In this document: positions 19,921 through 36,305 of the stretch, piece after piece | Layout: every line of letters starts with the position of its first letter | Position numbering within the stretch: the stretch's first letter is position 1 | Assembly: GCF_000732725.1 (NCBI RefSeq) | Contig: NZ_JPNB01000003.1 | Span: 186,001-250,000 of the forward strand | Source: Kineothrix alysoides | GTDB taxonomy: Bacteria; Bacillota; Clostridia; Lachnospirales; Lachnospiraceae | Reading direction: 5' to 3' | Length of the DNA: 64,000 nt | The notes under the pieces: generated by a model | What the model was told of the DNA's origin: nothing | Seen by the model: the letters and a program-made list of their open reading frames with translations, nothing else | Databases searched by the model: none | Position numbers and translations under genes: made by a program

Positions 19921-20167
19921 GTTGCGAGAGACTGGGGGCGGCGGCATTGGGGTTGGGGCCTGCCGTGCGCGGCTGTATTTTCTAAATGAAACCGTTAGTG
20001 TGTTGGAACGGAACGGGTCGGCAGCAGCGTACATCCATGTACGATGCTGCCTAAACGCCGCATCCATGCGGCGTTTTCCCTTGGTTGTGAGGGTTTCATT
20101 AAGAAAATATCAGCCGCTTACTAAACGGACCCAACCCCAATGCCGCCGCCCCCAGTCTCCCACTACG
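19921..20167. repeat. Large palindromic element A, copy 1
   Basis: Outer arms 19928-19957 and 20130-20159 are perfectly complementary over 30 bp. Inside, GCGGCTGTATTTTCTAAATG pairs with the conserved ATTAAGAAAATATCAGCCGC. Two inner hairpins follow: GTACATCCATGTAC, and CGCCGCATCCATGCGGCG. Lies between the convergent SDR and ribH genes. Related copies at 21149 and 33944. From here to 20335 nothing else is recognisable. Confidence 0.9.
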
Positions 20168-20335
20168 CTATGAATGAGAGTTTTGTATCCCGTACATTTA
20201 CTGGAGTGAACCAGTATATCAAATAACCGGACTGAATATGCAGGATAAACTTTCCTATGTCACAACTGAAAGTTTAGACAAGTAATCGGTCCAGTTAATT
20301 TGTGGATGATATACCAGAGCGCACTGCGCTTCAAT

Positions 20336-20800
20336 TTATACCATGTTTTTCATGAGGTTTACCATTTCGATAGCTCCAACAGCACAATCGAACCCCTTAT
20401 TGCCGGCCTTTGTTCCGGCTCTCTCTATTGCTTGCTCGATGTTCTCAGTGGTAAGTACTCCAAACATCACCGGAATACCGGTGCTTAGTGATACGCTGGC
20501 GATTCCCTTGGAAACTTCGCTGCACACATAATCATAATGGGATGTGCTTCCCCTGATAACCGCTCCCAAACAAATCACCGCATCATATTTCTTGCTATTA
20601 GCCATGGCAGAAGCCACCAGCGGAATCTCAAAGGCTCCCGGCACCCACGCCACTTCAATATCCTCCTCTTTCACCTCGTGCCGAAGCAACCCATCTACCG
20701 CACCGCCAAGCAGCTTTGCAGTAATAAACTCATTAAACCTCGCCGCCACAATTCCAACTCTGATCCCTTTTGCTACTAACTGTCCTTCATAAGTCTTCAT
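20336..20800 (-). CDS. ribH: 6,7-dimethyl-8-ribityllumazine synthase
   Basis: A 154-aa lumazine synthase, the penultimate riboflavin enzyme, which joins the pyrimidine intermediate to dihydroxybutanone phosphate and assembles into capsids. VPGAFEIPL near residue 51, [17 protein letters not shown] near 76 (substrate loop with the catalytic His) and [18 protein letters not shown] at the end are family hallmarks. The start at 20800 (MKTYEG) has AGGAGA 8 bases upstream; a GTG two codons earlier is less likely. It belongs to the rib operon but is separated from ribBA by about 630 bp containing a palindromic element and a purine-rich tract, so it may have its own expression control. Confidence 0.96.
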
Positions 20801-20806
20801 AATCAC

Positions 20807-21075
20807 ATTCTCCTATTCTTACTTTTTTGCTTTTTCTATTTTTTCACTTTACTTTTTCTATTGCCTTGTTCTATATCTGTTCCATTTTATCTATCCTATC
20901 ATCATCTATCTTCGTAGTTTCTCACTGAAGTAAATCATCCTACATGCCTCTCCCTATGTTCTTACTCTATTTTCCTTTTATCTTTTATTCTCCTTATCTT
21001 TTGTTTCTTTTACCTTTTATTTTTTATCCCTTCTATCTTTTATCTTTTATCCCTTTCTCCTCTATACATATTTCA
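20807..21075. other. Polypyrimidine/polypurine tract inside the rib operon
   Basis: About 270 bp that is strongly C/T on the plus strand (repeated TTTTATC and CTTTTATC words), so the leftward rib transcript is an A/G-rich leader just ahead of ribH. No gene is visible. The spacer between ribBA and ribH also contains element A copy 2. Confidence 0.6.
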
Positions 21076-21148
21076 ATTTTAAATAAAAATCACACCTGAG
21101 AAATTCGTAACCTTCGCAAATTTTATGTACAATTTCGTAACCTTGCCG

Positions 21149-21376
21149 GGCCTTTCTTCGGCGGATTGGGGGGCTGGTCTGTCAGTGAGCGGCTTGCATT
21201 TTCTTAATGAAAACCCCGACCCCCAGGGAAAACGCCGCACGGATGCGGCGTTTAGGCAGCGCTGCACATGGATGTGCATCGCTGCCGGCCCGTCCGCAAC
21301 CGACACCTCAACGTTTTCATTTAGAAAATTCAGCCGCGAGCGCCGGAACAGAACCCCAATCCGCCGAAGAAAGGCC
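21149..21376. repeat. Large palindromic element A, copy 2 (inverted)
   Basis: Reverse orientation relative to copy 1. Outer arms 21149-21171 and 21354-21376 are perfectly complementary over 23 bp but have a different sequence from the arms of copies 1 and 3. The inner core (TTTTCTTAATGAAA, CGCCGCACGGATGCGGCG, GCACATGGATGTGC) is conserved. It lies between ribBA and ribH and would be transcribed with them. Confidence 0.9.
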
Positions 21377-21432
21377 ATCACCACCAAGACCATTATACAT
21401 AAAATTTTCACAACCTCCCCTTTCTCTTCCCC

Positions 21433-22635
21433 CTATTTAAAATTCAAATAATGCCCCATCCTATCCCTCTTCGTCCGCAAATATTCCACATCATGCTTAT
21501 TCGCCTCCGCCTCAATCGGCACGCGCTCCGTAATTTCTATGCCGAAATCCGAAAGCTGATATACCTTGTCAGGATTGTTCGTCAACAGCCGCAAAGTCTT
21601 CACTCCCAAATCCCGAAGTATCTGCGCTCCAATGTAATACTCCCGCATATCCTCTGCAAATCCCAGCGCCAGATTAGCCTCCGCCGTATCCAATCCCTCG
21701 CTTTGCAATTCATACGCCCGCAATTTATTCAGCAGTCCAATGCCTCTTCCTTCCTGGCGCATGTAAAGAAGAATGCCTCTTTCTTCTTTTTCTATCCTCT
21801 TCATGGATTGTATCAACTGCTCACCGCAGTCGCAGCGCATAGAATGAAATACATCCCCGGTCAGGCATTCCGAATGTACTCTGCACAGCACATTCTTTCC
21901 ATCTCCCACTTCTCCTTTCACAAGAGCGATATGGTGTTCTCCATTTAATTTATTCCTGTATCCATAAGCCCTGAAATCTCCATACGCCGTTGGAAGGAGG
22001 GGACTTGCAACGCGCTCTGCCAAATGATCGAATCTTTTTCGGTAATCCTGCAAGGCCTTAATCGTAATGAACTTAAGATTCCATTTGTGCGCGAGTTCTA
22101 TAAGCTCCGAAGTTCGCATCATACGCCCGTCTTCTGCCATAATTTCACAGCATAAGCCACACTCGCGCAGGCTCGCAAGCCGCATCAAATCTACCGTTGC
22201 CTCGGTATGCCCGCCTCGCTCCAGTACACCGTTTTTCTTAGCCAGAAGAGGGAACATATGGCCCGGACGGCGAAAGTCTTCCGGCTTTGCTGCAGCCTCT
22301 ACTGCCTTAAGAGCAGTAACGCTCCTCTCTTTTGCTGATATGCCTGTCACGGTATCTACATGGTCTATGGATACGGTAAACGCCGTAGCGTGGTTATCCG
22401 TGTTGTCACTTACCATTTGTGGAAGCTGTAACTGCTCGCATATATCCGCACTCATGGGCATGCAGATGAGACCTTTTCCGTAAATTGCCATAAAATTAAT
22501 ATTCTCTGTCGTGGCAAACTGTGCGGCACAGATAAAATCGCCCTCATTCTCTCTATTTTCATCGTCCGTGACAAGAATGATTTCACCTCTTTTCAGCGCC
22601 TCTAATGCTTCTTGAATTGTGTTGAATTCAAACAT
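21433..22635 (-). CDS. ribBA: Bifunctional DHBP synthase / GTP cyclohydrolase II
   Basis: A 400-aa fusion. Residues 1-200 are 3,4-dihydroxy-2-butanone-4-phosphate synthase: [11 protein letters not shown] near 24 (metal and substrate acids) and [11 protein letters not shown] near 143. Residues 205-400 are GTP cyclohydrolase [22 protein letters not shown] near 256 holds the three zinc Cys, and [13 protein letters not shown] near 297 the catalytic Arg. It supplies both branch precursors of riboflavin. AAGGAGGG precedes the start; it follows ribE by 12 bp. The order ribD-ribE-ribBA-ribH is the standard Firmicutes operon. Length is normal. Confidence 0.97.
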
Positions 22636-22647
22636 GACCTTCCCTCC

Positions 22648-23277
22648 TTAAAATCCATTTTGAATTAAGAACTCTTCCGTTATTTTACCTTTGTCCTGCA
22701 CAAATTTTTCAACATACTTTCCTATCATATCGTTTTCTAAATTTACGGAGGAACCTGCGCCTTTTCTAAAAAGTATAGTTTCCTTTGCTGTGTGTGGAAT
22801 TACCGATACACAAAAGCTGCCACGGGAAACTGCTGCTACGGTCAGGCTCACGCCGTCTATGGCTATCGAGCCTTTCTCTACGATATAGCGCATGATATTG
22901 GATGGTGCTGCGATTTCATATAAAAGGGCTATACCGTCCTTTTTTACGGAGGCCACTTTCCCCACACCGTCGATATGTCCGGTCACCATATGACCCCCGA
23001 ATCTTCCTCCTGCCATCATCGCCCGTTCCAAATTTACAAGACTTCCCCCTTGCAAGTTCCCTAATACGGAACGGGAAAGAGTTTCATTCATTACGTCCGC
23101 ACCGAATCTACTATCTTTTACCCATGCCGCGGTCAGACAGACTCCATTTACGGCTATGCTGTCGCCAACCTTCAAATCTTCTGATATACCATCGGTCTCA
23201 ATGGTCAAAAAAGCAGATCGGCTTCCTTTCTTTATACTTTCTACCTTTCCCATCTCTTCTATTATTCCGGTAAACAT
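22648..23277 (-). CDS. ribE: Riboflavin synthase alpha chain
   Basis: A 209-aa protein with two lumazine-binding repeats: MFTGIIEEMG at the start and MVTGHIDGVG near residue 98. VGDSIAVNGVCLT and its second-repeat equivalent GSIAIDGVSLT are the substrate-contact segments. It catalyses dismutation of two lumazine molecules to riboflavin. The gene overlaps the end of ribD by 16 bp, a sign of translational coupling, and AGGTGG precedes its ATG. Confidence 0.96.
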   Translation of the reverse strand: MFTGIIEEMGKVESIKKGSRSAFLTIETDGISEDLKVGDSIAVNGVCLTAAWVKDSRFGADVMNETLSRSVLGNLQGGSLVNLERAMMAGGRFGGHMVTGHIDGVGKVASVKKDGIALLYEIAAPSNIMRYIVEKGSIAIDGVSLTVAAVSRGSFCVSVIPHTAKETILFRKGAGSSVNLENDMIGKYVEKFVQDKGKITEEFLIQNGF

Positions 23278-24374
23278 GTATAGTCCACCTCGCTTTCTAT
23301 AAGAAAATCCTCGCCAATCTTCGTAATTGTCTGATTTTTCAGCCTTATGCAGTCACCCATCCTCTCGATTCCCATGCCTTCCACAGGAGTCTTCGCTTTT
23401 TCTCCCCCCAATATCTTAGGAGCAATATAGACTTGTATTTTATTTACGATACCGGTTTGGAGAGCGGAAAAATTCAGAGCTCCTCCTCCTTCCAAGAAAA
23501 CGCTGTCAATTCCCCGCACCCATAGCTCCTTCATCAGAAGTTGTAAATCGATATGTCCCTTCTCCTTTGGAAGCACGATAATTTCGCAGCCGCACTGCTT
23601 AAATTTCTCTTGCTTCTCCTTATCCTGGCAGGCGGTAGCTATTATGGTCGCTCCCTGCCCCGTCTTGCCTGCTAACTCTACAACAGCCGCTTCGAGAGGT
23701 GTATACAAATTCGTATCGCATATGATGCGTATTGGATTTCTGCCTCCGTTCATTCGGCAGGTGAGAAGAGGATTATCCTTAATTACCGTCTTTACACCGA
23801 CCATAATAGAGGAATAGCGACCCCTATCCTGATGGACATTTTCTCTCGCTGCTTCTCCTGTGACCCATTTGGAATCTCCGCATGCCGAAGCTATTTTTCC
23901 ATCCATGGTCATAGCGTATTTCATGACAACGAAAGGGGTATTTGTTTGTATGCAGTGGAAGAACACCTGGTTCAACCTCTCTCCTTCTTCCTCGCGTATA
24001 CCGGTTACCACTTCGATTCCTGCCGCCCGCAATGCTTCGATTCCCTTACCTGCTACCTCAGGATTAGGGTCCGTGCAGGCAATAACTACTTTCTTGATTC
24101 CGCTTTCTATAATCGCTTCCGTACACGGCGGTGTTTTTCCGTAGTGGCAGCAAGGCTCCAGATTGACATACAATGCGGCTCCCTCTGTATTCTCCTTGCA
24201 GCTTGTAAGTGCGTTTCTCTCCGCATGTGGCCCCCCATAGTTTTCATGAAACCCCTGCCCGATAACCTTCCCCTTCTTTACAATAACAGCACCTACCATA
24301 GGATTCGGATTTACTCGTCCTATTCCTTTTTTCGCAAGTGCAAGTGCCATTTCCATAAACTTCTCATCCGTCAT
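23262..24374 (-). CDS. ribD: Bifunctional pyrimidine deaminase/reductase
   Basis: A 370-aa two-domain enzyme carrying out the second and third steps of riboflavin synthesis. Deaminase domain: HAERNAL near residue 51 and LEPCCHYGKTPPC near 75 supply the zinc His and Cys. Reductase domain: KYAMTMDGKIAS near 155, and VFLEGGGALNFSAL near 296 with the NADPH-binding glycines. I chose the start at 24374 (MTDEKFMEMALALAKK), which matches where family members begin; the ATG at 24398 lacks a ribosome site, and GGGAG is 13 bases before 24374. First gene behind the FMN riboswitch. Confidence 0.95.
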   Translation of the reverse strand: MTDEKFMEMALALAKKGIGRVNPNPMVGAVIVKKGKVIGQGFHENYGGPHAERNALTSCKENTEGAALYVNLEPCCHYGKTPPCTEAIIESGIKKVVIACTDPNPEVAGKGIEALRAAGIEVVTGIREEEGERLNQVFFHCIQTNTPFVVMKYAMTMDGKIASACGDSKWVTGEAARENVHQDRGRYSSIMVGVKTVIKDNPLLTCRMNGGRNPIRIICDTNLYTPLEAAVVELAGKTGQGATIIATACQDKEKQEKFKQCGCEIIVLPKEKGHIDLQLLMKELWVRGIDSVFLEGGGALNFSALQTGIVNKIQVYIAPKILGGEKAKTPVEGMGIERMGDCIRLKNQTITKIGEDFLIESEVDYTCLPE

Positions 24375-24539
24375 ATCGCCAGCTTTACTCCCTTCCATAC
24401 AATCTGAGGCGTCAAATCGCCTAACTTATGTTAATTAATAACAAATACACGCTTTCCAGATTGCTCTCATTAAACAGAAATCTGCTTTATGCAATCCCGC
24501 AGCCAAGTCCTTTGGCAGCGCAGGGCTTCCACTATGAAA

Positions 24540-24576
24540 TAAAAAAGCTGCCTTGAGTATATAATCCCAAGGCAGC
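24540..24576 (-). terminator. Second terminator in the rib leader
   Basis: Minus strand: GCTGCCTTG pairs with CAAGGCAGC, followed by a run of T. Lies between the riboswitch and ribD. Confidence 0.75.
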
Positions 24577-24597
24577 AATAAAAGCACGTTAATCATA

Positions 24598-24631
24598 TAA
24601 AAAGCTCTGAAATGAGAAACATTCCAGAGCT
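24598..24631 (-). terminator. Riboswitch expression-platform terminator
   Basis: Minus strand: AGCTCTGGAAT pairs with ATTTCAGAGCT and is followed by TTTTTAT, about 40 bases after the FMN aptamer. Probably the main FMN-dependent attenuator. Confidence 0.75.
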
Positions 24632-24670
24632 AATATACAAAAGAAAACACGTTAAATGTGCTATCAAAAA

Positions 24671-24777
24671 ATCTTCTTTCATCCAGACTGTACTGTCGGC
24701 TTCGGAATCTCACCGAATCATGCCTTGCGGCTCGTGGGCTTTACCACCGGTAGGGAATCGCACCCTGCCCTGAAGAT
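24671..24777 (-). promoter_or_regulatory. FMN riboswitch (RFN element)
   Basis: Minus strand, closed by ATCTTC / GAAGAT (P1). It contains the conserved blocks AGGGCAGGGTG, ACCGGTGGTAAAGCCC, CACGAGCC and GATTCGGTGAGATTCCGAAG, then GACAGTACAGTCTGGATG. FMN binding turns down ribD-ribE-ribBA-ribH. Confidence 0.96.
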
Positions 24778-24862
24778 ATGTATTTAATTATTTTACATGA
24801 TAGCAGATTGATATTTATTTGTCAATAACCTGTTTCTCTGCTTATCTCTATGCTTGCCTATA

Positions 24863-25828
24863 TCATCCTTTTACGGCTCCTTGTGCCATTCCTTTCACCA
24901 TGTTCTTAACAAGAACGAAATAAAGCAGAACGATGGGTACGGCTATAAATACGCTTCCGGCGGCAAATCTTGCGAATTCCGTTTCATCCAGACTCATAAG
25001 ACCTACTGCGACCGTATAAAGGTTCTTTTCCTTTAGGAGAAGCTTAGGCAGAATGAAATCGCTCCACGGCCAGGTGAAGGAGGTAAGCAGGGTATAAACG
25101 ATAATCGGCCGGGAAAGCGGAAGATTAATCTTGGTAAACACCTGAAAATTAGTAGCTCCATCAATTCTTGCCGCCTCATCGATGGCTCTCGGGATCGTAT
25201 CAAAAAATCCCTTCTGTGTCAGATAGCCCATGGGTGCTCCTGCACTGTAAATGAGTATCAGCCCCCATAAATGATTGATTAAATTAAACTGGGTCATCAG
25301 AAGATATACGACTATCATCCCCATAAAGGAAGGGAACATGCTAAGTACCATCGTCGTCTTCATAATAGGCTTTCTTGCCCTGAATTCGAATCTGGACATC
25401 GTATAAGCTGTCAATATAACAAGAAAAGTTCCGAGAATACAGCTTCCTGCCGCTACAAACAATGTATTGGCGAACCACCTGGGATAATTATACATAGCGA
25501 TATCCGTGAATAATCGCTGAAAACTTGCCAGACTGTATGCCTTCGGGAAAAATCCGTTAAAGGAATAAATCGTTCCCGACTCGGAAAAGGAGGCCAAAAT
25601 CAGCCATAAACAAGGAAAGAAAAAAAGGAAGGATACTGCCAGTAAAATAATATAAGTAATTCCCGTGTCGAATATCCTGCCCAAGGCGTGGATAACACTT
25701 ATTGAGTATTCTTTACTCGTTGAGTGCTCTTCACTCATTGAGTGCTCTTCACTCATTGAATGCTCTTCACTCATTGAATGCTTCTCACTCATTGATAAAT
25801 CCTCTCTTTTATTTTGCTTCGTTCTCAT
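24863..25828 (-). CDS. Maltodextrin-type ABC transporter permease (MalG-like)
   Basis: A 321-aa inner-membrane permease with six predicted membrane segments. The EAA loop EAARIDGATNFQVFTKINLP near residue 215 contacts the ATPase. The C-terminal part is ordinary MalG. The N-terminus is odd: residues 13-42 consist of five six-residue repeats of the type MSEEHS, encoded by 18-bp tandem repeats. The start at 25828 overlaps the upstream stop (ATGA) and has AGGAGG; a second possible start at 25792, just before the repeats, has GAGAGG. No ATPase gene is nearby, so a shared MsmK/MalK-type ATPase elsewhere is expected. Confidence 0.9.
   Translation of the reverse strand: MRTKQNKREDLSMSEKHSMSEEHSMSEEHSMSEEHSTSKEYSISVIHALGRIFDTGITYIILLAVSFLFFFPCLWLILASFSESGTIYSFNGFFPKAYSLASFQRLFTDIAMYNYPRWFANTLFVAAGSCILGTFLVILTAYTMSRFEFRARKPIMKTTMVLSMFPSFMGMIVVYLLMTQFNLINHLWGLILIYSAGAPMGYLTQKGFFDTIPRAIDEAARIDGATNFQVFTKINLPLSRPIIVYTLLTSFTWPWSDFILPKLLLKEKNLYTVAVGLMSLDETEFARFAAGSVFIAVPIVLLYFVLVKNMVKGMAQGAVKG
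25703..25793. repeat. Tandem 18-bp coding repeats at the malG-like 5' end
   Basis: Units of the form TCACTCATTGAGTGCTCT, about five copies with a few substitutions. Unit length is a multiple of three, so gain or loss keeps the frame. Confidence 0.85.
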
Positions 25829-27180
25829 CGGAATGTATCCTCCTCCCTATAGGACGGCGATTTTATATAGACCGTTAACGATATGATCGAGGTAATGACA
25901 AAAATCACCAGACTGATGGCAGCCCCCAGGCAATAATAGTTATTATTAATAGAAAGATTGTACAGCCAGTTGATCAAGAGGTCTGTATCGCTGGCAAGGA
26001 AATAGCCATCCATATACAACCCTCCCCGCAGAAAATAGAAGATGCCGAAGTTATTGAAATTGCCTACAAACTGTCCGATAAGTACCGGCAATGTGGAAAA
26101 CAGCACAAAGGGCATGGTAATCCTTAGAAACTGCTTCCACTTCCCCGCTCCGTCGATTCTCGCCGCTTCGTACAGTGAGATGTCCCTGTTCGAAAGAATG
26201 CCTGTAGCTAACAACATGATAGAAGGAGTACTGATCCAGCAGTTTACCACTATTCCTATCAGCCTCGCCGTCCACTTTGCATCCAGGTCGAGAAAGCCTA
26301 TGGCAGCTCCTCCCCCTGCGGTAATGAGTTGATTGACCGGTCCGCCGTAAGAAAACATGAATTTGAACGCCAGAAGCGTAATAAATCCGGGAATCGCATA
26401 AGCCAATACCGGGAACATCCTCCAGAACGCTTTGCCTTTTACACAGTCCTTATCGAGCAAGAGTGCCAGCCCAAGACCGGCAAAATAATTGAGCACGGTA
26501 GCTGCAACGGCCCATAGCAGATTCCAGCCTAGAATTTTGACAAAGGTAGGCGCAAACTGCGACAGCGATAAGAGTTTCACGAAATTGGCAGCCCCTACCC
26601 AATCTACCAGTTCCGGAGGAACCACCGTCCCGCCGTAATTGGTAAATGCGATAAGTATCATAAATATAATGGGCAGAACATTAAATACGAACACTCCGGC
26701 CACCGGGAGTATCAGCACTGTCACATAGAACTTTTTATCCCAAAGCTGCATCGCCTCTTCTCTAAGGGTGAGAATTCTTCTTCCCTGCTCCAGCCGCTTC
26801 TTCATACGATATGCGTCACCGATATTCATAGCATAGAGGTATAAAAATGCCGCCAGCACCAGCCATGCAAAAATTCCCATCAAAAGCATTACCACCGAAT
26901 TATCTCCGGTAACTCCAAGCCAGGCATCTCCCTTTTTCGTCCCCAGCGTGAAGAAACCGGCAATATCTGCAAAGCCTCTCGTAATGAAATAGTAAAGGAC
27001 GCTTAGCTGGATTAGGAAAAATAATATACCTTTCCCTCTGGCCCCATATTTAAACTGCCCTCCGCCCATGATAACGATGGACAGCTTCACATTTGGGCCG
27101 CTATCTCTTAACAAACCTGCTGCCTGCTCCATTTTCCCTTTCATTTTCTTCCCATATCCTTCCTCTTTCAATGTTACCAT
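25825..27180 (-). CDS. Maltodextrin-type ABC transporter permease (MalF-like)
   Basis: A 451-aa permease. Two extra membrane segments lie near residues 48-70 and 93-118, before the six-segment core, as in other Firmicutes MalF proteins. The EAA loop is EAARIDGAGKWKQFLRITMP near residue 337. It pairs with the MalG-like permease (4-bp overlap) and the lipoprotein encoded just upstream to import oligosaccharides. The start is uncertain: the ATG at 27180 follows the upstream stop by 3 bp without a clear ribosome site; in-frame ATGs at 27144 and 27132 are alternatives. Confidence 0.9.
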   Translation of the reverse strand: MVTLKEEGYGKKMKGKMEQAAGLLRDSGPNVKLSIVIMGGGQFKYGARGKGILFFLIQLSVLYYFITRGFADIAGFFTLGTKKGDAWLGVTGDNSVVMLLMGIFAWLVLAAFLYLYAMNIGDAYRMKKRLEQGRRILTLREEAMQLWDKKFYVTVLILPVAGVFVFNVLPIIFMILIAFTNYGGTVVPPELVDWVGAANFVKLLSLSQFAPTFVKILGWNLLWAVAATVLNYFAGLGLALLLDKDCVKGKAFWRMFPVLAYAIPGFITLLAFKFMFSYGGPVNQLITAGGGAAIGFLDLDAKWTARLIGIVVNCWISTPSIMLLATGILSNRDISLYEAARIDGAGKWKQFLRITMPFVLFSTLPVLIGQFVGNFNNFGIFYFLRGGLYMDGYFLASDTDLLINWLYNLSINNNYYCLGAAISLVIFVITSIISLTVYIKSPSYREEDTFR

Positions 27181-27183
27181 TAC

Positions 27184-28683
27184 TTATTTCAGGGTAAATA
27201 TCGCATTGTGGATTTGAGAGTCCACCTGCTCCAGCCCCTTCTTCATTGCCGGAAGATCCTGATACTTCTTCTCCTCGGTTTTTCGAAACGCATCTTTCGC
27301 AATATCCGTAAAAAAGGTTTCGCCCGGCGTCCATATCTGAGCTACTTCCCTGATGGAAGGCATCAGAATAATATTTCCCTTTTCCAGATTTTCAAAAAGC
27401 CGTCTGGATACATCGCCTGATACCTCTGCAGCATCCGCTCTCGCCGGAGCCACACCGAGCAGTTCATTTCGAAGCTTCATCATTTCATAGCCGGATGCGA
27501 ATTCAACAAAAGCAAGACAGGCATTAGGAGCCTTCGTATAAGCGCTGACCGCATATCCGTTCACGCCTCCCATAGACTTAGAATCCATCCATACAGGATT
27601 TTCCTCGGATAAATCCCCACTCTCCGGAAGCTTTGGCACGGGTGACATCACCATGTTTTCTTTTGCAAGCTCAGTTGCTTTTTCTTCATCCATTCCTTCG
27701 CTTTTATAGCTCTTGACCAGCTCTTCCAGAAAGGTGGAATAAACGTCCGGTGTGGACAACGTTGCAAAATAAGTGCCATCCGCTATTTTACCGTAACAGG
27801 TGGTATTGATCGTATTGTCAATGCATTCCTCGTTCATGGCGCCTGCCAACTGTGCCAGAACCCATGCTCCTTTTTCCGCCTCTGCAGCAGAGAATCCAAT
27901 ATCTTCCGGATCAGTGTTGTTGTCCCCGAATATATAACCGCCATAGGAGAAAAGAAAACCTCCCGAAAAATATACATCATAGAGGGCTTTCATGTAACCA
28001 TAGTTAAGCGGATTCTCCTCATGTCTGGCTATAGAAAAGGCATATAAATCATTCCAATTCTCCGTGATATCACAAATACCGTTTCCGTCCTTATCCCAAT
28101 CGGTCTCCCAGTTCGCAGGCAGCATATCCTTTCTGTAATAAAGCATCGGAGCCTGTACATTCACCGGTACTCCGCAGTAATAAAGGTTTCCGTCCACCTC
28201 CGTCTCGTACGCCTTCCAGGCTGCTTCCGGTATCTGCTCATAGCATTCCATATCCTGCACCGGAAGCGGGTAGACATGCTTGCCCTGCGCATATTGCATT
28301 ATAATGTCATTTGCCTGATACAATACGTCCGGTCCATAGCCATAAGGTCCGTCATTTGCCAAATCCAAATACTGATCCATATTGGCATCCACCGCCGTAA
28401 TTCCGTATTCTGCATATGCCTCATTGAATGCTTCCAAAAGTTCCTTCGCATATCCTCTTGCGATTGCCGTATCATTTTCCAGCACTCGGATTGTTACGTT
28501 ATGCTCCAGCTCTCCGGTAAATGCCCCACTGCTCTGGATCGTTTTCGGTGTTTCCTTGTCTTTTACTGAAACGCCGGTTTCTGCCGTCCGGTCCTTGGCC
28601 GCATCCGCATTGCCGCAGCCTGCAGCCAACCCCAATACCCCAGTTAACATGAGCGATAGTATTATTGCCTTCCTCTTCTTCAT
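27184..28683 (-). CDS. Maltodextrin-type ABC transporter substrate-binding lipoprotein
   Basis: A 499-aa extracellular binding protein. The signal peptide ends in the lipobox LAAGC near residue 23, so it is lipid-anchored. The body resembles MalE-like solute-binding proteins (DVLYQANDIIMQYAQGKHVY near 118, SMGGVNGYAVSAYTKAPNAC near 368). It is about 80 residues longer than E. coli MalE. It should bind maltodextrins or related oligosaccharides, supported by the GH13 enzyme gene 41 bp upstream. GAGGAGG precedes the start. Confidence 0.9.
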   Translation of the reverse strand: MKKRKAIILSLMLTGVLGLAAGCGNADAAKDRTAETGVSVKDKETPKTIQSSGAFTGELEHNVTIRVLENDTAIARGYAKELLEAFNEAYAEYGITAVDANMDQYLDLANDGPYGYGPDVLYQANDIIMQYAQGKHVYPLPVQDMECYEQIPEAAWKAYETEVDGNLYYCGVPVNVQAPMLYYRKDMLPANWETDWDKDGNGICDITENWNDLYAFSIARHEENPLNYGYMKALYDVYFSGGFLFSYGGYIFGDNNTDPEDIGFSAAEAEKGAWVLAQLAGAMNEECIDNTINTTCYGKIADGTYFATLSTPDVYSTFLEELVKSYKSEGMDEEKATELAKENMVMSPVPKLPESGDLSEENPVWMDSKSMGGVNGYAVSAYTKAPNACLAFVEFASGYEMMKLRNELLGVAPARADAAEVSGDVSRRLFENLEKGNIILMPSIREVAQIWTPGETFFTDIAKDAFRKTEEKKYQDLPAMKKGLEQVDSQIHNAIFTLK

Positions 28684-28724
28684 ACCTGCCTCCTCGTTTT
28701 CTATATACTTCTATGTTTCTGCCG

Positions 28725-30455
28725 CTAATCTTCCATCCCGATAACGGCGAATCCCCTTTGTTCCACCGTAACTGCAGCCGGAGCCTCAAACCTTGCACGG
28801 TTGCCGCAGAGAAGTTTGACAAAGCCCCCGTCCTCCATATGCTCTGTCTGAGCTTCCTCCGTCATATTGATGAGCAGCCTTAATTTTTTCCCGGGAATGC
28901 CCCGTTCTACCAAAAGCATTTTCCCCTGAGCCGTCACTCTTATATCACCTTGGGCAATCTCAGGCCGCTTTCGCAATCCGGTCAGTTCTTTCACCTTTTC
29001 CATCAACCCGGCATCCCATGAACGTTCCTCCCAGTCGAAGCAGCGGCGGGAATCAGGATCGTAACCACCCTCCAGGCAGATTTCCGTACCATAATAAATG
29101 CATGCAGCTCCGATAAATATTATTTCAAGAGCAAGAGCTGCCAGCAACTTATCCTTGTTCTTCCCTACCTCTGTAAAAAAGCGGTGGGTATCGTGAGAAT
29201 CCAGAAGATTCAACATCATCCGGTTCACCTGTTCCAAATTTCTCATCAAATTGGCATTCAATTTCCACGCCATCTGTTCGGCATCAAAATTTTCCCTTGC
29301 AAAATAATCCAGACATGCCTTTGTAAACGCATAGTTCATAATACTGTCATACTGGTCACCCATAAGGTACGGATACGCATCATGCCAGTTCTCCCCGATA
29401 ATGACCGCCTCCGGCTTCGTCTCCTTAACTGCCTTGCGGAAGGTTCGCCAGAATTCATGAGAAATCTCATCCGATACATCCAATCGCCAGCCGTCAATTT
29501 CATATTCCTTTATCCAATACACCGCAATCCGTATGAGAAACTCCTGCACTTGTTTATTTGCTGTGTTCAGTTTAGGCATATAGTTGCAGGAAGCAAAGCA
29601 TTCATAGTTTATTTTCTCCGTATCCGGATAGTCTCCGTCAATCAGAAACCAATCATAGTATTCCGACTCTCTCCCCTTAGCAAGTACATCCTGAAACTGC
29701 TCTGTCTCCATACTGCAGTGATTAAATACTGCATCCAGCACTACCCGGATCCCTTTCCGGTGAGCCAGCCTTACCAGCTCCTTTAAATCCTCCTCCGTGC
29801 CAAACTGAGGGTCAACCTGCATATAATTAATAATATCATATTTATGATTGGATACCGACAAGAAGATCGGTGTCAGGTAAAGAGCAGTTATCCCAAGTTC
29901 CTTTATATAATCAAGCTTCCGGATAATTCCCTTTAAATCCCCTCCTGCGAAGCCTTTTGCAAAGGGCTTATCATTCCACTTCATATTGATATAGGAGCAA
30001 TCCTTTTTTATATCCTCCATAAAAAAACGATCGACAAATATCTGGTAAAATATCGCATCTTTCATCCAGTCCACCGTCGGCAGCAAATCATTTTTATTAA
30101 TATACGGCATCTGGAAAAAATTATAAAATCCCTCTTTAAAGTTATAGGTATCGGTGATACCGTCTTCGCTGAAATAATATACTTTCCCGTTTTGCTCAAT
30201 CCTGAAAATATATGCCAGCCGCACATCCTCAAGTTGTAATTTGATTTCATAATAATTATAAATTCTATCGCTATACCCTACATGCATAACCGCACTTTCC
30301 TGTTTTTCCTGAAAATTGTATTTGCATGCATATATTAAAAAAACCTTTGTCTCCTCATCCTCCTTTGCCATTCTAAACCTTATTACCAATTCCTTTTCTC
30401 CTATAGGAAAACAATATCTGGAATCGGGAATATGTAACATCGCATATTCGTTCAT
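28725..30455 (-). CDS. GH13 alpha-amylase-family enzyme, neopullulanase/cyclomaltodextrinase-like
   Basis: A 576-aa protein. An N-terminal beta-sandwich domain (residues about 1-120) precedes the (beta/alpha)8 barrel, the layout of neopullulanases and cyclomaltodextrinases. Catalytic residues: Asp in DGWRLDVSDE (about 326), Glu in VIIGENWHD (about 355) and Asp in LLDSHDTH (about 422); DAVFNHC near 254 is conserved region I. No signal peptide is seen, so it acts in the cytoplasm on imported oligosaccharides. The start at 30455 has GAGAGGA 7 bases upstream; a longer form to 30497 lacks this. First gene of the malE-malF-malG-like operon. Confidence 0.92.
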   Translation of the reverse strand: MNEYAMLHIPDSRYCFPIGEKELVIRFRMAKEDEETKVFLIYACKYNFQEKQESAVMHVGYSDRIYNYYEIKLQLEDVRLAYIFRIEQNGKVYYFSEDGITDTYNFKEGFYNFFQMPYINKNDLLPTVDWMKDAIFYQIFVDRFFMEDIKKDCSYINMKWNDKPFAKGFAGGDLKGIIRKLDYIKELGITALYLTPIFLSVSNHKYDIINYMQVDPQFGTEEDLKELVRLAHRKGIRVVLDAVFNHCSMETEQFQDVLAKGRESEYYDWFLIDGDYPDTEKINYECFASCNYMPKLNTANKQVQEFLIRIAVYWIKEYEIDGWRLDVSDEISHEFWRTFRKAVKETKPEAVIIGENWHDAYPYLMGDQYDSIMNYAFTKACLDYFARENFDAEQMAWKLNANLMRNLEQVNRMMLNLLDSHDTHRFFTEVGKNKDKLLAALALEIIFIGAACIYYGTEICLEGGYDPDSRRCFDWEERSWDAGLMEKVKELTGLRKRPEIAQGDIRVTAQGKMLLVERGIPGKKLRLLINMTEEAQTEHMEDGGFVKLLCGNRARFEAPAAVTVEQRGFAVIGMED

Positions 30456-30581
30456 ATACTTTATCCTCTCTAAATTTTCACCGGCGCTTATTGACAAATA
30501 CTAAAAAATTCTATATAACTTTTGAATAGACCCATTCCGGTCATTCCCGGAAAAGGAATATCCTACAAGGGGGAAACTTAA

Positions 30582-31379
30582 GTGAAAAATAAAATCACAA
30601 TCAGAGATGTTGCGCGGGAGGCCGATGTATCCATTGCAACCGTATCTTATGTATTAAATGGGCGCACAGACATGCGTATCAGCGAACAAACGAGAAAAAA
30701 GGTACTGCAGGTCATCAATCTTCTGGATTATACACCCAATCAGTCCGCTCAGGCGCTTGCAACAAACCGCAATCGCATGATAGCCCTGTATCTTACCCCC
30801 GATGCTTCTGTGTTAAACAAAGCGGAACAGATGTGTTTTATTCACCTTCTGTCGTCCTTTCTTCACGAAAAGAACTACGATCTTATATATCTGAGTGATA
30901 ACTATACGGAACAGTTCGACAATGCAGATGCGATTATCGGTTATGACATTTCTGCCGAATATTTTCATCAAATCGGTGACGTCAACTTCAGTCCATTATT
31001 AGCTGTGCACTGCTTTATTGAGGACCCCTTATTTTTCCAGATAAATTCCGATTATGCAAGGATTGCCGGTGAAGCTTCCCTTTTTTTCCAGGGTGAGCCT
31101 TACACTCTTTATTCTCTGAAGACTCCTAATATTCAGAAACAGCAATATCTTGAAAAAAACTTTTCCAAGGTGCATTATGTGGAAGACTTCCATGATCTTG
31201 ACAATACAGACGGGGAAAATATCCTTGTCATGGATCAGACGCTGCAAGAACTGCTGAAAAATCACCCTTCCTTGTACTATGTGCCCTCCATGTCCGCCGA
31301 AAAAGCGGAGGCTCTCATTACCTGCGTCGAATATGCACTTTTAAGAACCCCGCTTAAGCAGCATAATATCCTCATATAG
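30582..31379 (+). CDS. LacI-family regulator, short form
   Basis: A 265-aa protein. The N-terminal LacI helix-turn-helix is clear: [20 protein letters not shown] then LNGRT, and the hinge region [20 protein letters not shown]. The effector domain is about 70 residues shorter than usual and only loosely resembles a periplasmic-binding fold. It starts at GTG, with AAGGGGGA 7 bases upstream. It is divergent from the GH13 operon and convergent with the lipoprotein gene. It is the likely binder of the TTAACCGGTTAA-type operators at 32670 and 32724. Whether the shortened domain still binds a sugar is unknown. Confidence 0.85.
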
Positions 31380-31452
31380 ATAATGCCTTTCCGATTGATA
31401 TTTTGCAGATTAGTATCTTCGGATTACTATCTTCCAAATACAGAAAAGCTCT

Positions 31453-32631
31453 TTACTTGCAAGACACCACAAGCACCTTTGATGAAGCATCATAGGTGAA
31501 CGTATAGGTTCCGTCCTGTCCGGCAATCAGATTGGCGCCGCCGCCCTCCGAAACGAAGGAAAGGCTATCAGCATCGTCAGAAGCAATATTGGTAAAACGA
31601 ATGTATTCCGTTCCTACAGTAGCGATATCCCCGACCGTCACCATAGATGTGAACATAAACTCATCCCCTTCTGTAAGGCCGACGCTCAGCGTATATATGT
31701 CTCCATCCTGCGTAAACTCCGTTTCTGCCGAGTAAACATCCTCCCAGCCCGTTATGACCGCTCCTTTTATGTAGTAATTTACCTGCATATCCCCGGCATT
31801 CGCTGTTGCCTCACCATTATAGGTCCATGTAATCTTATCGTAGGGATTAATGTTGAATCCCTCTTTATTTTCCTCAGAATAGTTGGAGGCGCTTGTATCA
31901 TAAGTGTCCTCTGCCGGATAAGTGGTCAGGGTAAAAGTGTAATTGCCTGTTACCGCACATTTGATATTGGAACGCTTCGTGCTGGCTTCTCCCAGACCTC
32001 CGGAATTATAGAAATAATCCTTGCTGTCCAAAGAAATGGTATCCAGATAGCCATAGCCTCTCTGATCATTCCACTGCGTATTTATTGCGAACTGAAATTC
32101 ATCTCCTTCATTCAAGTCCAGTGTAATCGTATAAATGTTTTCCGAATCGCTTTCTTCCTTTGTCATTTTATGTACATCCGTAATGCTCGTTCCCCAATTG
32201 GATTCCAGCAACGCCAAACTCGTTCCGCTTCCCACAATGGCAAATTCCCTCTCGTCCTCTTGATAGGAAACAAATCCGGCAAAAGCGGACATATCTTCCG
32301 TTACCGGCTGCTCAAAATTGAACTTATGGCTCATCTGCGGCGTTGCAAACCAATCCACAAAGACATAGCCCTCTTTTTCAGGCACATATTCCTCTGCCAA
32401 AGCACCGTCAACAACTTCTGCTTCCTTTAAAACAGTCGCGGCGTCCGAATCATAAAAAGTCACCTTATGCACTGTTTCTTCCGTAGAAGATTCTTCCGAC
32501 ACACCTGCCTGTACTTCTTCCGCTGCACTTCCCGTCTCCTGCGTCTGAGCGCTACCGCAGCCTGCCAGAAGCAAGCCTGTTGTTACAAATCCTACTGCGA
32601 ACAATTTCCCTATTTCTTTTCTTCTCTTCAT
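31453..32631 (-). CDS. Secreted lipoprotein with InlB-type repeat and starch-binding-like modules
   Basis: A 392-aa lipoprotein; the lipobox LLLAGC lies near residue 24, followed by a Ser/Glu-rich linker. Residues about 55-115 (VTFYDSD...GYVFVDWFATPQMSHKFNF) match the Listeria-Bacteroides (Flg_new) repeat. Two similar beta-rich modules follow (FAIVGSGTSLALLESNWGTS... and VNYYIKGAVITGWEDVYSAE...), each ending in a TFT strand, resembling SusE/SusF-type starch-binding domains. It may hold starch at the cell surface for the neighbouring GH13/ABC system. The start at 32631 has GTGGAGG upstream. The repeat-domain names are recognised from pattern, so function is inferred. Confidence 0.72.
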   Translation of the reverse strand: MKRRKEIGKLFAVGFVTTGLLLAGCGSAQTQETGSAAEEVQAGVSEESSTEETVHKVTFYDSDAATVLKEAEVVDGALAEEYVPEKEGYVFVDWFATPQMSHKFNFEQPVTEDMSAFAGFVSYQEDEREFAIVGSGTSLALLESNWGTSITDVHKMTKEESDSENIYTITLDLNEGDEFQFAINTQWNDQRGYGYLDTISLDSKDYFYNSGGLGEASTKRSNIKCAVTGNYTFTLTTYPAEDTYDTSASNYSEENKEGFNINPYDKITWTYNGEATANAGDMQVNYYIKGAVITGWEDVYSAETEFTQDGDIYTLSVGLTEGDEFMFTSMVTVGDIATVGTEYIRFTNIASDDADSLSFVSEGGGANLIAGQDGTYTFTYDASSKVLVVSCK

Positions 32632-32669
32632 TTTTTCCTCCACCCTTAACTATAGTTATTCTTATTTGC

Positions 32670-32735
32670 TTAACCGGTTAATCAAAAAGGATTTTTTAAG
32701 CAAACTGCCGAATCACAGTTTGCTTAAACGGTTAA
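32670..32735. promoter_or_regulatory. Two LacI-type operators
   Basis: TTAACCGGTTAA (32670-32681) is a perfect palindrome with central CG, and TTAAACGGTTAA (32724-32735) is a near-perfect copy; both are preceded by TTGC or TGC. The 54-bp spacing (about five helical turns) would let one tetramer or two dimers loop DNA. The second lies just downstream of the -10 box. Confidence 0.7.
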
Positions 32736-32746
32736 ACTATATAAAT

Positions 32747-32775
32747 AATGTATCACTATTCGTATCCCATGTCAA
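32747..32775 (-). promoter_or_regulatory. SigmaA promoter of the starch-binding-type lipoprotein
   Basis: Minus strand TTGACA (32770-32775), 17-bp spacer, TACATT (32747-32752), with a LacI-type operator right after it. Confidence 0.7.
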
Positions 32776-32806
32776 CAATTGTTTGCCTACTTTTTCAGAA
32801 GTCTCA

Positions 32807-32954
32807 AATATTCGTTACTGTGCACTCCGTTCTCAGCAACGCATGATTTCTGCAATGCAAATTCGCTCTGCGAAGCAGAAATCATCTCTTGAATCACGTT
32901 CTTACGTAGCTTAACAGCAAGTGCTAAGCTACTGTCTGAACAGTAACAAATATT
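32807..32954. repeat. Palindrome-ended element E, copy 1
   Basis: Terminal inverted repeat of 15 bp with one mismatch (AATATTCGTTACTGT / ACAGTAACAAATATT), 148 bp overall. Internal stems GATTTCTGC / GCAGAAATC and GTAGCTTA / TAAGCTAC. Its right end overlaps the last codons of msrAB. Confidence 0.75.
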
Positions 32955-33885
32955 CCCCGTAGCCCTCCTTCTCCATTTTTTCCTTCGGTATAAATCTAAG
33001 AGAAGCGCTGTTAATACAGTACCTAAGACCTCCCCTATCCATAGGCCCGTCCTCAAATACATGCCCCAAATGCGCATCCCCGGTTCTGCTCCTCACCTCG
33101 GTCCTCACCCTGCCAAAGCTCGTATCGACAGCGTCCGTAATAAGTGCTGCATCGATAGGCTTGGAAAAAGCAGGCCAGCCGCATCCCGATTCAAATTTAT
33201 CATCCGACAAGAAAAGAGGCTCTCCTGTAGTAATATCCACATAAATTCCTTCCCGGAACTCATCGAAATATTCGTTATGAAAGGGCTGCTCCGTGGCACT
33301 ATTCTGTGTCACTTCGAACTGAAGATTTGTCAAGCTTTCCTTCAATTCCTCCGCAGATTTTTTTATATATCTCCGGCCTGTATCCACTGCGTTCTTCGCC
33401 TTCTCGAACTTATCCGCCCCGATATGGCAATATCCATGGGGATTCTTATCCAAATATTTCTGGTGGTACTCCTCCGCCCTAGAATAGTTATCCAGCGGCT
33501 TCACCTCGATTGCAATCTTTTCCTTATATTTTAATTGGAGCTTGCCGATGGATTCACGGATAATGCCCTCGTCCTCATCGTCCGTAAAATAAATTCCGGT
33601 CCTATATTGCGAACCTACGTCATTTCCCTGCCGATTCACACTCACCGGATTAATCACATCGTAATAAAGCTCCAGCAAAAATGGAAGTCCGATTACCGTA
33701 TTCTCATACACCACTCTAACCGCCTCCGCATGTCCTGTATTCCTATGGCACACTTCTTCATAGCTGGGATTTTTTGTATTCCCATTCGCATATCCGACCT
33801 CCGTCTCCAAAATCCCCTTAACCTCTTCCAAATACTTCTCCGTTCCCCAAAAGCAACCTCCGGCCAAATAAATTTCTTTCCTCAT
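32929..33885 (-). CDS. msrAB: Fused methionine sulfoxide reductase MsrA-MsrB
   Basis: A 318-aa fusion repairing both epimers of oxidised methionine. MsrA domain: [10 protein letters not shown] near residue 8, with the catalytic Cys, and [10 protein letters not shown] near 146. MsrB domain: [19 protein letters not shown] near 184, [11 protein letters not shown] near 227 and [11 protein letters not shown] near 295, with the reactive Cys at the end. The start at 33885 ([10 protein letters not shown]) has AAAGGAGA 8 bases upstream; an upstream extension would run into a repeat element. The last codons lie within a palindromic repeat, suggesting that the insertion replaced the original 3' end while leaving the domain intact. 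Confidence 0.95.
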
Positions 33886-33941
33886 AAAATTTCTCCTTTC
33901 ATCTAATATATTTTTTATTGTGTGTTGATTTGTCAGGTAAC

Positions 33942-34179
33942 GAGAGACTCGGGGCGATGGATTGGGTTTGGGGTCTGCGTACGCGGCTGTATTTTCTAAA
34001 TGAAACCTGTTCTGTGTCGGAACCGAACGGGCCGGCAGCAACGTACATCCATGTACGATGCTGCCTAAACACCGCTTCCGTGCGGTGTTTACCCTGAGTT
34101 GTGAAAGGTTTCATTAAGAAAATGCAAGCCGCTTACTAAACGTCCCCAAACCCAATCCACCGCCCCGAGTCTCCCACTA
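33942..34179. repeat. Large palindromic element A, copy 3
   Basis: Outer arms 33944-33973 and 34144-34173 pair over 30 bp with one mismatch. Inner core as in copy 1 (GCGGCTGTATTTTCTAAATG, GTACATCCATGTAC, CACCGCTTCCGTGCGGTG). It shares the outer borders CGAGAGACT and AGTCTCCCACTACG with copy 1. Lies between the msrAB and permease genes. Confidence 0.9.
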
Positions 34180-35971: not shown

Positions 35972-36026
35972 AGAAGGGTGTTCCCTTTCTATGCACGCAA
36001 GCATAGAAAGGGACATCCTTTTTTTA
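35972..36026 (+). terminator. Terminator after the uracil permease gene
   Basis: A long stem formed around GTTCCCTTTCTATGC / GCATAGAAAGGGAC, followed by seven T residues. Confidence 0.85.
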
Positions 36027-36033
36027 TATTATA

Positions 36034-36146
36034 GGAAGGTGCTCCTACTACACAAACCATGGATGCGCAGCTACGCGCGCGGAACAAAAAGCTGCGCTTT
36101 CGAAGTATTGGGCTGCGAGAGTGTGCGAAGCACACTTTTGTTCTGT
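36034..36146 (-). repeat. Dispersed repeat C, copy 2
   Basis: Same pattern as copy 1 at 4315 but on the opposite strand: hairpin, GGATGCGCAGCTACGCGCG, GGAACAAA, then GTGTGCGAAGCACAC and TTTTGTTCT. Directly followed by copy 3 in tandem. Confidence 0.85.
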
Positions 36147-36265
36147 AATAGGAAAGTGCTTCTATTACACAAACCATGGATGCGCAGCTACGCGCGCGGA
36201 ACAAAAGCTGTGCTTCCGAAGTATTGGGCTGCGAGAGTGTGCGAAGCACACTTTTGTTCTATCAT
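36147..36265 (-). repeat. Dispersed repeat C, copy 3
   Basis: Almost identical to copy 2 and in the same orientation, giving a two-unit tandem with a unit of about 115 bp. Confidence 0.85.
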
Positions 36266-36305
36266 AGGAATGGCCCTGGTATTTTTACGTGGAAAATATT
36301 GTCTT

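What the first reader, a model, noticed from the sequence alone, without database searches (positions are those of the whole stretch)
19921..34179. Three-copy ~240-bp palindromic element with variable but complementary outer arms
Copies at 19921-20167, 21149-21376 (inverted) and 33942-34179 share a core (P2 stem with a conserved A.A mismatch, then two hairpins whose loops contain TCC). The outer arms (30, 23 and 30 bp) differ between copies, yet are self-complementary in each. Inner stems also change in pairs: GTACAT/ATGTAC versus GCACAT/ATGTGC, and CGCCGC/GCGGCG versus CACCGC/GCGGTG. This pattern points to selection or gene conversion for structure, in RNA or in hairpin DNA. No gene is encoded.
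Basis: partly seen in the sequence, partly recalled or inferred. Interest (0 to 1): 0.75.

Follow-up and report, generated by a model that had tools for sequence, protein, structure and literature searches.

The report
Mobile hairpin DNA with matching arms
The three large hairpins are copies of a known but unexplained bacterial "RNA" family, and in this group of gut bacteria that family looks like the centre of a small jumping DNA palindrome whose two arms keep changing but mostly change together.

Summary
All three copies match Rfam RF01731 (TwoAYGGAY) at 95-97 bits (cut-off 43); folding z-scores are -11 to -16. It is a known family: candidate RNA (Weinberg 2010), proposed CsrA sponge (2014), typed Cis-reg by Rfam.

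New here: it behaves as a mobile palindromic DNA element. This genome has 15 distinct loci, a congener at least 62. Several sites lack it in relatives. In two genomes elements end in 16-bp inverted repeats abutted by 9-bp direct repeats: 27 of 51 match at 6 or more of 9 bases, shuffled mean 1.2. Arms differ between copies, yet paired changes outnumber single ones without wobble bias (171 G.T, 181 A.C), which points to DNA-level arm-to-arm copying. The core keeps strand-specific features: GGA loops, a T.T mismatch, a G.T excess (47 to 21).

Against a simple story: in another genus (G410) the arms show a G.T excess (46 to 16) and no target duplication was found; no transposase partner was found; the window genome's own copies have no clear terminal repeats or duplications.

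The parts
19921..20167 (-). Copy 1 of the palindromic element (Rfam strand is -); core 19962-20124; outer arms 19924-19957 and 20130-20163
   Evidence: RF01731 95.3 bits; fold z -16.4; orthologous copy at the same place in G009
21149..21376 (+). Copy 2 (Rfam strand is +); core 21182-21344; outer arms 21149-21171 and 21354-21376; lies between ribBA and ribH
   Evidence: RF01731 96.9 bits; fold z -11.3; orthologous copy in G009; gene names
33942..34179 (-). Copy 3 (Rfam strand is -); core 33976-34139; outer arms 33942-33973 and 34144-34175
   Evidence: RF01731 96.1 bits; fold z -15.2; in G009 the same place keeps degraded arms without the core, in G012 no similar sequence

Best explanation
In this group TwoAYGGAY is the conserved centre of a small mobile DNA element without a gene of its own (MITE type): a long palindrome made of a two-hairpin core between long inverted arms and, in sister species, 16-bp terminal inverted repeats. 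Shown: dispersed copies in varying number, sites without the element in relatives, inverted ends with 9-bp direct repeats (in G015 and G004 only), arms that change mostly in pairs. Inferred: a DDE-type transposase supplied in trans moves it (from the 9-bp repeats and lack of a gene), and the arms stay complementary because one arm serves as template for the other in a hairpin during replication or transposition (template switching), so a mutation is copied to the other arm or erased. Arms therefore drift fast yet stay matched. The core is under separate, strand-specific selection (GGA loops, T.T mismatch), perhaps because a protein recognises the folded single strand, RNA or DNA.
For: 15 distinct loci in the own genome, at least 62 in G015, 49 in G410; 12 of 16 genomes of the genus carry it, 4 gave no match (stricter filters, 38 candidates scored). 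Sites without the element: L027 and L020, L024, L026 in G009; L020, L026, L028 in G007; L024, L028 in G012, each with both flanks matched. Ends: CACGGAAATCAATTTT 93 times in G015 vs 2 for the reversed control. 9-bp repeats in a single register, 27 of 51 with 6 or more of 9 matches vs shuffled mean 1.24, maximum 6 in 1000 shuffles. Paired vs single arm changes 24:14 at 90-95% identity, 229:94 at 85-90%, 14645:3971 over 1277 non-independent comparisons; L084/L085 differ at 12 of 93 columns, all paired. Arm mismatches 171 G.T vs 181 A.C. Half-elements, and one element with the same ends and arms but another centre.
Against: No autonomous element with these ends was found in G015. The window genome's copies show no clear terminal repeats or duplications; some of its sites are relics in G009 (window copy 3, L022, L028), so loss also happens. 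24 of 51 elements have fewer than 6 of 9 matches in the flanking repeat. G410, the genome closest to the Rfam consensus, has asymmetric ends, no detectable duplication (17 copies, best z 2.7 over many registers) and a G.T excess in arms (46 vs 16), which fits single-strand selection. At one shared site two species carry different subfamilies, so replacement may mimic fast arm change. The arm counts use local alignments that prefer matched columns, and the conserved T.T mismatch has to be protected from any copying.
Confidence: 0.72

Rival explanations
1. A family of trans-acting RNAs that sequester CsrA or another GGA-binding protein through the hairpin loops (the published proposal, PMC4333381). 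Many copies because dosage matters; arms merely stabilise the RNA.
For: GGA in two or more hairpin loops in 114 of 164 copies and in one loop in 45; G.T over A.C in the core 47:21 and in G410 arms 46:16; csrA in the own genome and in 10 of 11 well-assembled carriers.
Against: csrA is also in 22 of 34 non-carriers, p 0.14; four of the six G023 copies lack GGA loops although G023 has two csrA matches; arms in this genus show no wobble preference; insertion hallmarks need another explanation. It does not exclude mobility: the core could be such an RNA carried by a mobile element.
Confidence: 0.2
2. Arms are kept matched by selection for a perfect DNA hairpin or cruciform (for example recognised by an enzyme) rather than by templated copying.
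For: Equal G.T and A.C fits DNA-level selection as well as copying; the core shows selection on structure.
Against: Paired changes dominate even between closely related arms (12 of 12 in L084/L085), which is hard without single-change intermediates; arm sequence and length are otherwise very free.
Confidence: 0.3
3. A REP/BIME-like repeat moved by a Y1 (HUH) transposase acting on single-stranded hairpins.
For: Palindromic, intergenic-type repeats; close copies often in inverted pairs.
Against: Y1_Tnp is absent in G001 and G006, which carry 21 and 13 matches, and only a fragment is found in G004; 9-bp flanking repeats in G015/G004 are not expected for that route (recalled).
Confidence: 0.05
4. 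A cis-regulatory leader or transcription terminator of neighbouring genes (Rfam types the family Cis-reg).
For: Strong hairpins beside genes.
Against: Gene orientations around 126 of 134 copies are mixed: 40, 37, 25, 24 (my own ORF calling); the right-hand gene runs in the element's direction in 65 of 126, p 0.79. Weinberg 2010 marks the motif as not cis-regulatory in its table.
Confidence: 0.03

Closest known systems
TwoAYGGAY RNA, Rfam RF01731
   Same: All three copies score over twice the cut-off; two hairpins with GGA loops and the long closing stem.
   Different: Described as an RNA; here copies are inserted mobile units, and variable arms run well beyond the Rfam model.
Prokaryotic MITEs (review PMC10969869, passages read)
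   Same: Under 500 bp, no gene, inverted ends, flanking duplications, many dispersed copies, folded sequence.
   Different: Arms of up to about 150 bp that differ between copies yet stay matched; a separately conserved two-hairpin core; no known parent element; duplications shown only in two genomes.
Template-switch maintenance of RNA hairpins (PMC8794818, passages read)
   Same: Paired stem changes explained by copying one stem half from the other in DNA replication.
   Different: There in rRNA and other RNA genes; here in a mobile palindrome with equal G.T and A.C mismatches.
CsrB/RsmZ-type CsrA-sequestering RNAs (named in PMC4333381)
   Same: GGA in hairpin loops, two per molecule.
   Different: Tens of dispersed copies with insertion hallmarks; expression and binding untested.
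REP/BIME repeats with RAYT (Y1) transposases (recalled)
   Same: Palindromic repeats, often in inverted pairs.
   Different: Much longer; no correlation with Y1 genes; flanking 9-bp repeats.

Membership tests
TwoAYGGAY (RF01731) | Score at or above the curated cut-off | tested here: met
   95.3, 96.9, 96.1 bits vs 43
TwoAYGGAY (RF01731) | Two hairpins with AYGGAY-like loops | tested here: met
   Two GGA loops in 14 of 15 own-genome copies, one in the other
TwoAYGGAY (RF01731) | Acts as an RNA | not testable with these tools
   No expression data; core G.T excess 47:21 is suggestive only
MITE | Short, gene-less, dispersed in many copies | tested here: met
   15 distinct loci in own genome, at least 62 in G015, 49 in G410
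MITE | Terminal inverted repeats | tested here: inconclusive
   Met in G015/G004; not resolved in the window's genome; ends asymmetric in G410
MITE | Target-site duplication | tested here: inconclusive
   Met in G015/G004, 27 of 51 with 6 or more of 9; not seen in G410; not resolved in G000
MITE | Sites without the element in relatives | tested here: met
   L020, L024, L026, L027 in G009, with L027 clean
MITE | Parent transposon with the same ends | tested here: not met
   None seen among TIR hits and 20 fetched regions of G015; a parent with more diverged ends or in another genome is not excluded
REP/RAYT system | Linked Y1 transposase | tested here: not met
   G001 and G006 carry copies but have no PF01797 match
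CsrA-sequestering RNA | GGA in several hairpin loops | tested here: met
   114 of 164 copies with two or more, 45 with one, 5 with none
CsrA-sequestering RNA | Goes with csrA across genomes | tested here: inconclusive
   10 of 11 carriers vs 22 of 34 others, p 0.14
CsrA-sequestering RNA | Transcribed and bound by CsrA | not testable with these tools
   Needs experiment
Cis-regulatory leader | Same-strand placement upstream of genes | tested here: not met
   65 of 126, p 0.79

The most novel reading that the evidence does not exclude
A mobile palindrome that re-makes one arm from the other in each round of transposition or replication (a snap-back or hairpin intermediate), so that arms evolve fast yet always match, and that carries in its centre a GGA-loop structure binding a host protein such as CsrA: a selfish element that doubles as a regulatory decoy.
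Probability: 0.15. Interest if true: 0.8.

Novelty: new variant of a known kind. Interest (0 to 1): 0.55.

Why it matters
A curated RNA family defined by paired changes appears, in this group, to be part of a mobile DNA palindrome. Paired changes alone are then no proof of RNA function, and comparing G.T with A.C mismatches helps to tell the two readings apart. The family also offers tens of natural copies per genome in which arm-to-arm copying could be measured, and it gives the CsrA-sponge proposal a genomic setting that can be tested.

Tried and rejected
Terminator or leader role: gene orientations around 126 of 134 copies are mixed. Y1/RAYT link: no correlation. A recurrent neighbouring gene: the largest cluster of neighbouring proteins touches 10 of 134 copies and is an ABC transporter-like protein by its look, no name call made. 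Phages and plasmids: no match to copy 1; viral contigs: no match to one core pattern, a weak test. The same pattern in genome contigs found nothing, but records near the window may be left out there. FMN riboswitch as control for wobble tolerance: uninformative (25 of 30 fetched sequences; 2 G.U, 0 A.C). Parent transposon by pairs of ends 0.9-3.5 kb apart within fetched loci: only pairs with mismatched ends, none with a transposase that I recognised; five solo ends are half-elements by eye (L266, L268, L269, L280, L285). Duplications in G410: not found (one search stopped with an error).

Rows dropped before counts: 4 of 134 copies with short flanks; 5 of 134; the six G023 copies were not in the core test (128 of 134); 45 of 74 G015/G004 copies had both ends within 2 mismatches and similar arm lengths, and 6 loci from the end-pattern search were added; one search's arm-partner test used six genomes, 112 of 134 copies; G410 arms used 30 of 49 copies. 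Offsets were chosen as the best of several; the per-copy count uses the one register found there.

Papers: searches; 7 papers hold 'TwoAYGGAY', 5 listed. Passages seen of PMC2864571, PMC11701678, PMC4333381, PMC7657543, PMC8794818 and PMC10969869; PMC11661157 and the rest in listings only. None of the passages that I saw calls the family mobile; supplements were not available, so this is not a claim that nobody has said so.

Full report
What is there. The three copies are full-length matches to Rfam RF01731, TwoAYGGAY: 19962-20124 on -, 21182-21344 on +, 33976-34139 on -. Each sits inside a longer palindrome; outer helices by MFE are 34, 23 and 32 bp and folding z-scores -16.4, -11.3 and -15.2. 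The conserved mismatch is T.T on the Rfam strand within CTTA/TTAG and is also seen by eye in both G015 subfamilies. Copy 2 lies between ribBA and ribH, copy 1 beyond ribH (ORFs; names). An FMN riboswitch lies at 24667-24781 on -.

How widespread. The own genome has 16 hits, two of which appear to be one locus on an inverted contig-end overlap, so 15 distinct loci. In a search of 61 genomes (own and relatives) 14 have a match: 12 of 16 in the genus and 2 of the other 45 (stricter filters, at most 38 candidates scored per genome, so low counts and zeros are not final). G015 alone gives 62 (150 of 166 candidates scored), and further elements with the same ends were not in that list, so 62 is a lower bound. 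In the order 34 of 392 genomes have a match, 30 of the 34 in the same family (at most 7 candidates scored per genome). G015 is Lachnospiraceae bacterium 28-4, judged by equal contig lengths.

Mobility. In G015 and G004 palindromes end in CACGGAAATCAATTTT and its complement. Within 2 mismatches this occurs 93 times in G015 against 2 for the reversed control. Direct repeats flank these ends in one register: match rate 0.44, no other register above 0.33; it corresponds to 9 bp abutting the ends. 27 of 51 elements match at 6 or more of 9 bases, shuffled mean 1.24 and maximum 6 in 1000 shuffles; 24 of 51 match less well. Nine own-genome sites were compared with G009: window copies 1 and 2 are occupied there; window copy 3 keeps degraded arms without the core; L022 and L028 have relic pieces; L020, L024, L026 and L027 lack the element, L027 as a clean difference of about 306 bp. 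With both flanks matched, the element is also missing at L020, L026 and L028 in G007 and at L024 and L028 in G012. Gain in the line to the window's genome is the simplest reading for L020, L024 and L026, but relics show that loss also happens. Half-elements, and one element (L271) with the same ends and arms but another centre, occur in G015.

The arms. Arms differ strongly between copies, yet a copy's own arm is its best partner in 53 of 54 copies of G015, 17 of 17 of G004, 14 of 15 of G000, 8 of 8 of G005, 6 of 6 of G023 and 8 of 12 of G019. Between homologous arms, changes on both sides outnumber changes on one side: 24:14 at 90-95% identity, 229:94 at 85-90%, 14645:3971 over 1277 comparisons that are not independent (129 of 134 copies). 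L084 and L085 differ at 12 of 93 arm columns, all paired, and at 15 of 161 core positions. The method leans towards matched columns, because each copy's arms were first aligned to each other. At one orthologous site (G004 L123, G015 L072) arms differ between the species and both palindromes stay matched; at another (L118, L113) the two species carry different subfamilies, so replacement or repeated insertion happens too.

RNA or DNA. Selection for pairing on a transcribed strand should tolerate G.U over A.C. Arms give 171 G.T and 181 A.C over 14 genomes (which includes 12 bases of each core end, gave 176 and 193). Core helices of 128 copies give 47 and 21 (Fisher p 0.0014 against the counts). 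This favours DNA-level copying for the arms and a single-strand constraint, RNA or DNA, for the core. Against a uniform story, 30 copies of G410, which scores highest with the Rfam model, give 46 G.T and 16 A.C in their arms (p 0.0002), have asymmetric ends and no detectable duplication (17 copies). The FMN control was uninformative.

The core. Two or more GGA loops in 114 of 164 copies, one in 45, none in 5, four of these in G023. This fits the CsrA-sponge proposal (PMC4333381, passages), but csrA goes with carriers only weakly (10 of 11 against 22 of 34, p 0.14). The right-hand gene runs in the element's direction in 65 of 126 copies, against a cis-regulatory leader.

Best reading. A MITE-type palindromic mobile element whose arms are kept alike by templated copying, with a separately conserved two-hairpin core. 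The mobile part is well supported in G015 and G004 and likely for the window's copies; the copying mechanism is inferred; the transposase is unknown. Copying between stem halves has precedent in RNA genes (PMC8794818, passages), and folded MITEs are reviewed in PMC10969869 (passages).

Noticed in passing
G015, G410 and G000 full lists; also G023, G339, G416: Copies closer than 600 bp are nearly always arranged - then + on the Rfam strand: 7 such, 2 ++ (one tandem array), 0 +- in the full lists of three genomes, and 4 more -+ in G023, G339 and G416 from capped lists. One +- pair lies 1456 bp apart. The window's copies 1 and 2 are also - then +. Unexplained.
   Followed up: partly
G015 and G004 element arms: 5' arms are purine-rich (mostly 0.56-0.77 A+G) and 3' arms pyrimidine-rich; in G000, G005 and G019 this is not so. 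Unexplained.
   Followed up: no
window 32813-32947: A repeat of about 135 bp with one further copy in the own genome and at least 15 in G009; not an Rfam match.
   Followed up: no
window 36018-36270: Another dispersed repeat, with many copies in the own genome and in G012.
   Followed up: no
L071 and L097 (G015): A 1025-bp stretch, 99.7% identical, beside or inside copies of the element, with a transposase-like protein: DDE_Tnp_1 at 22.4 bits, just under the cut-off of 23, from a 160-residue piece.
   Followed up: partly
L271 (G015 C1:1396341-1396723): A palindrome with the same ends and perfect long arms, but a centre unlike TwoAYGGAY.
   Followed up: partly
G000 flanks of several copies, e.g. 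L020, L024, L030, L032: AATTTTATGTACAATT and its complement flank several own-genome copies, in L020 as tandem units; it may be the end of this subfamily or another repeat.
   Followed up: partly
window 24667-24781: FMN riboswitch (115.1 bits) upstream of ribD, ribE, ribBA, ribH, with element copy 2 inside that gene row.
   Followed up: no
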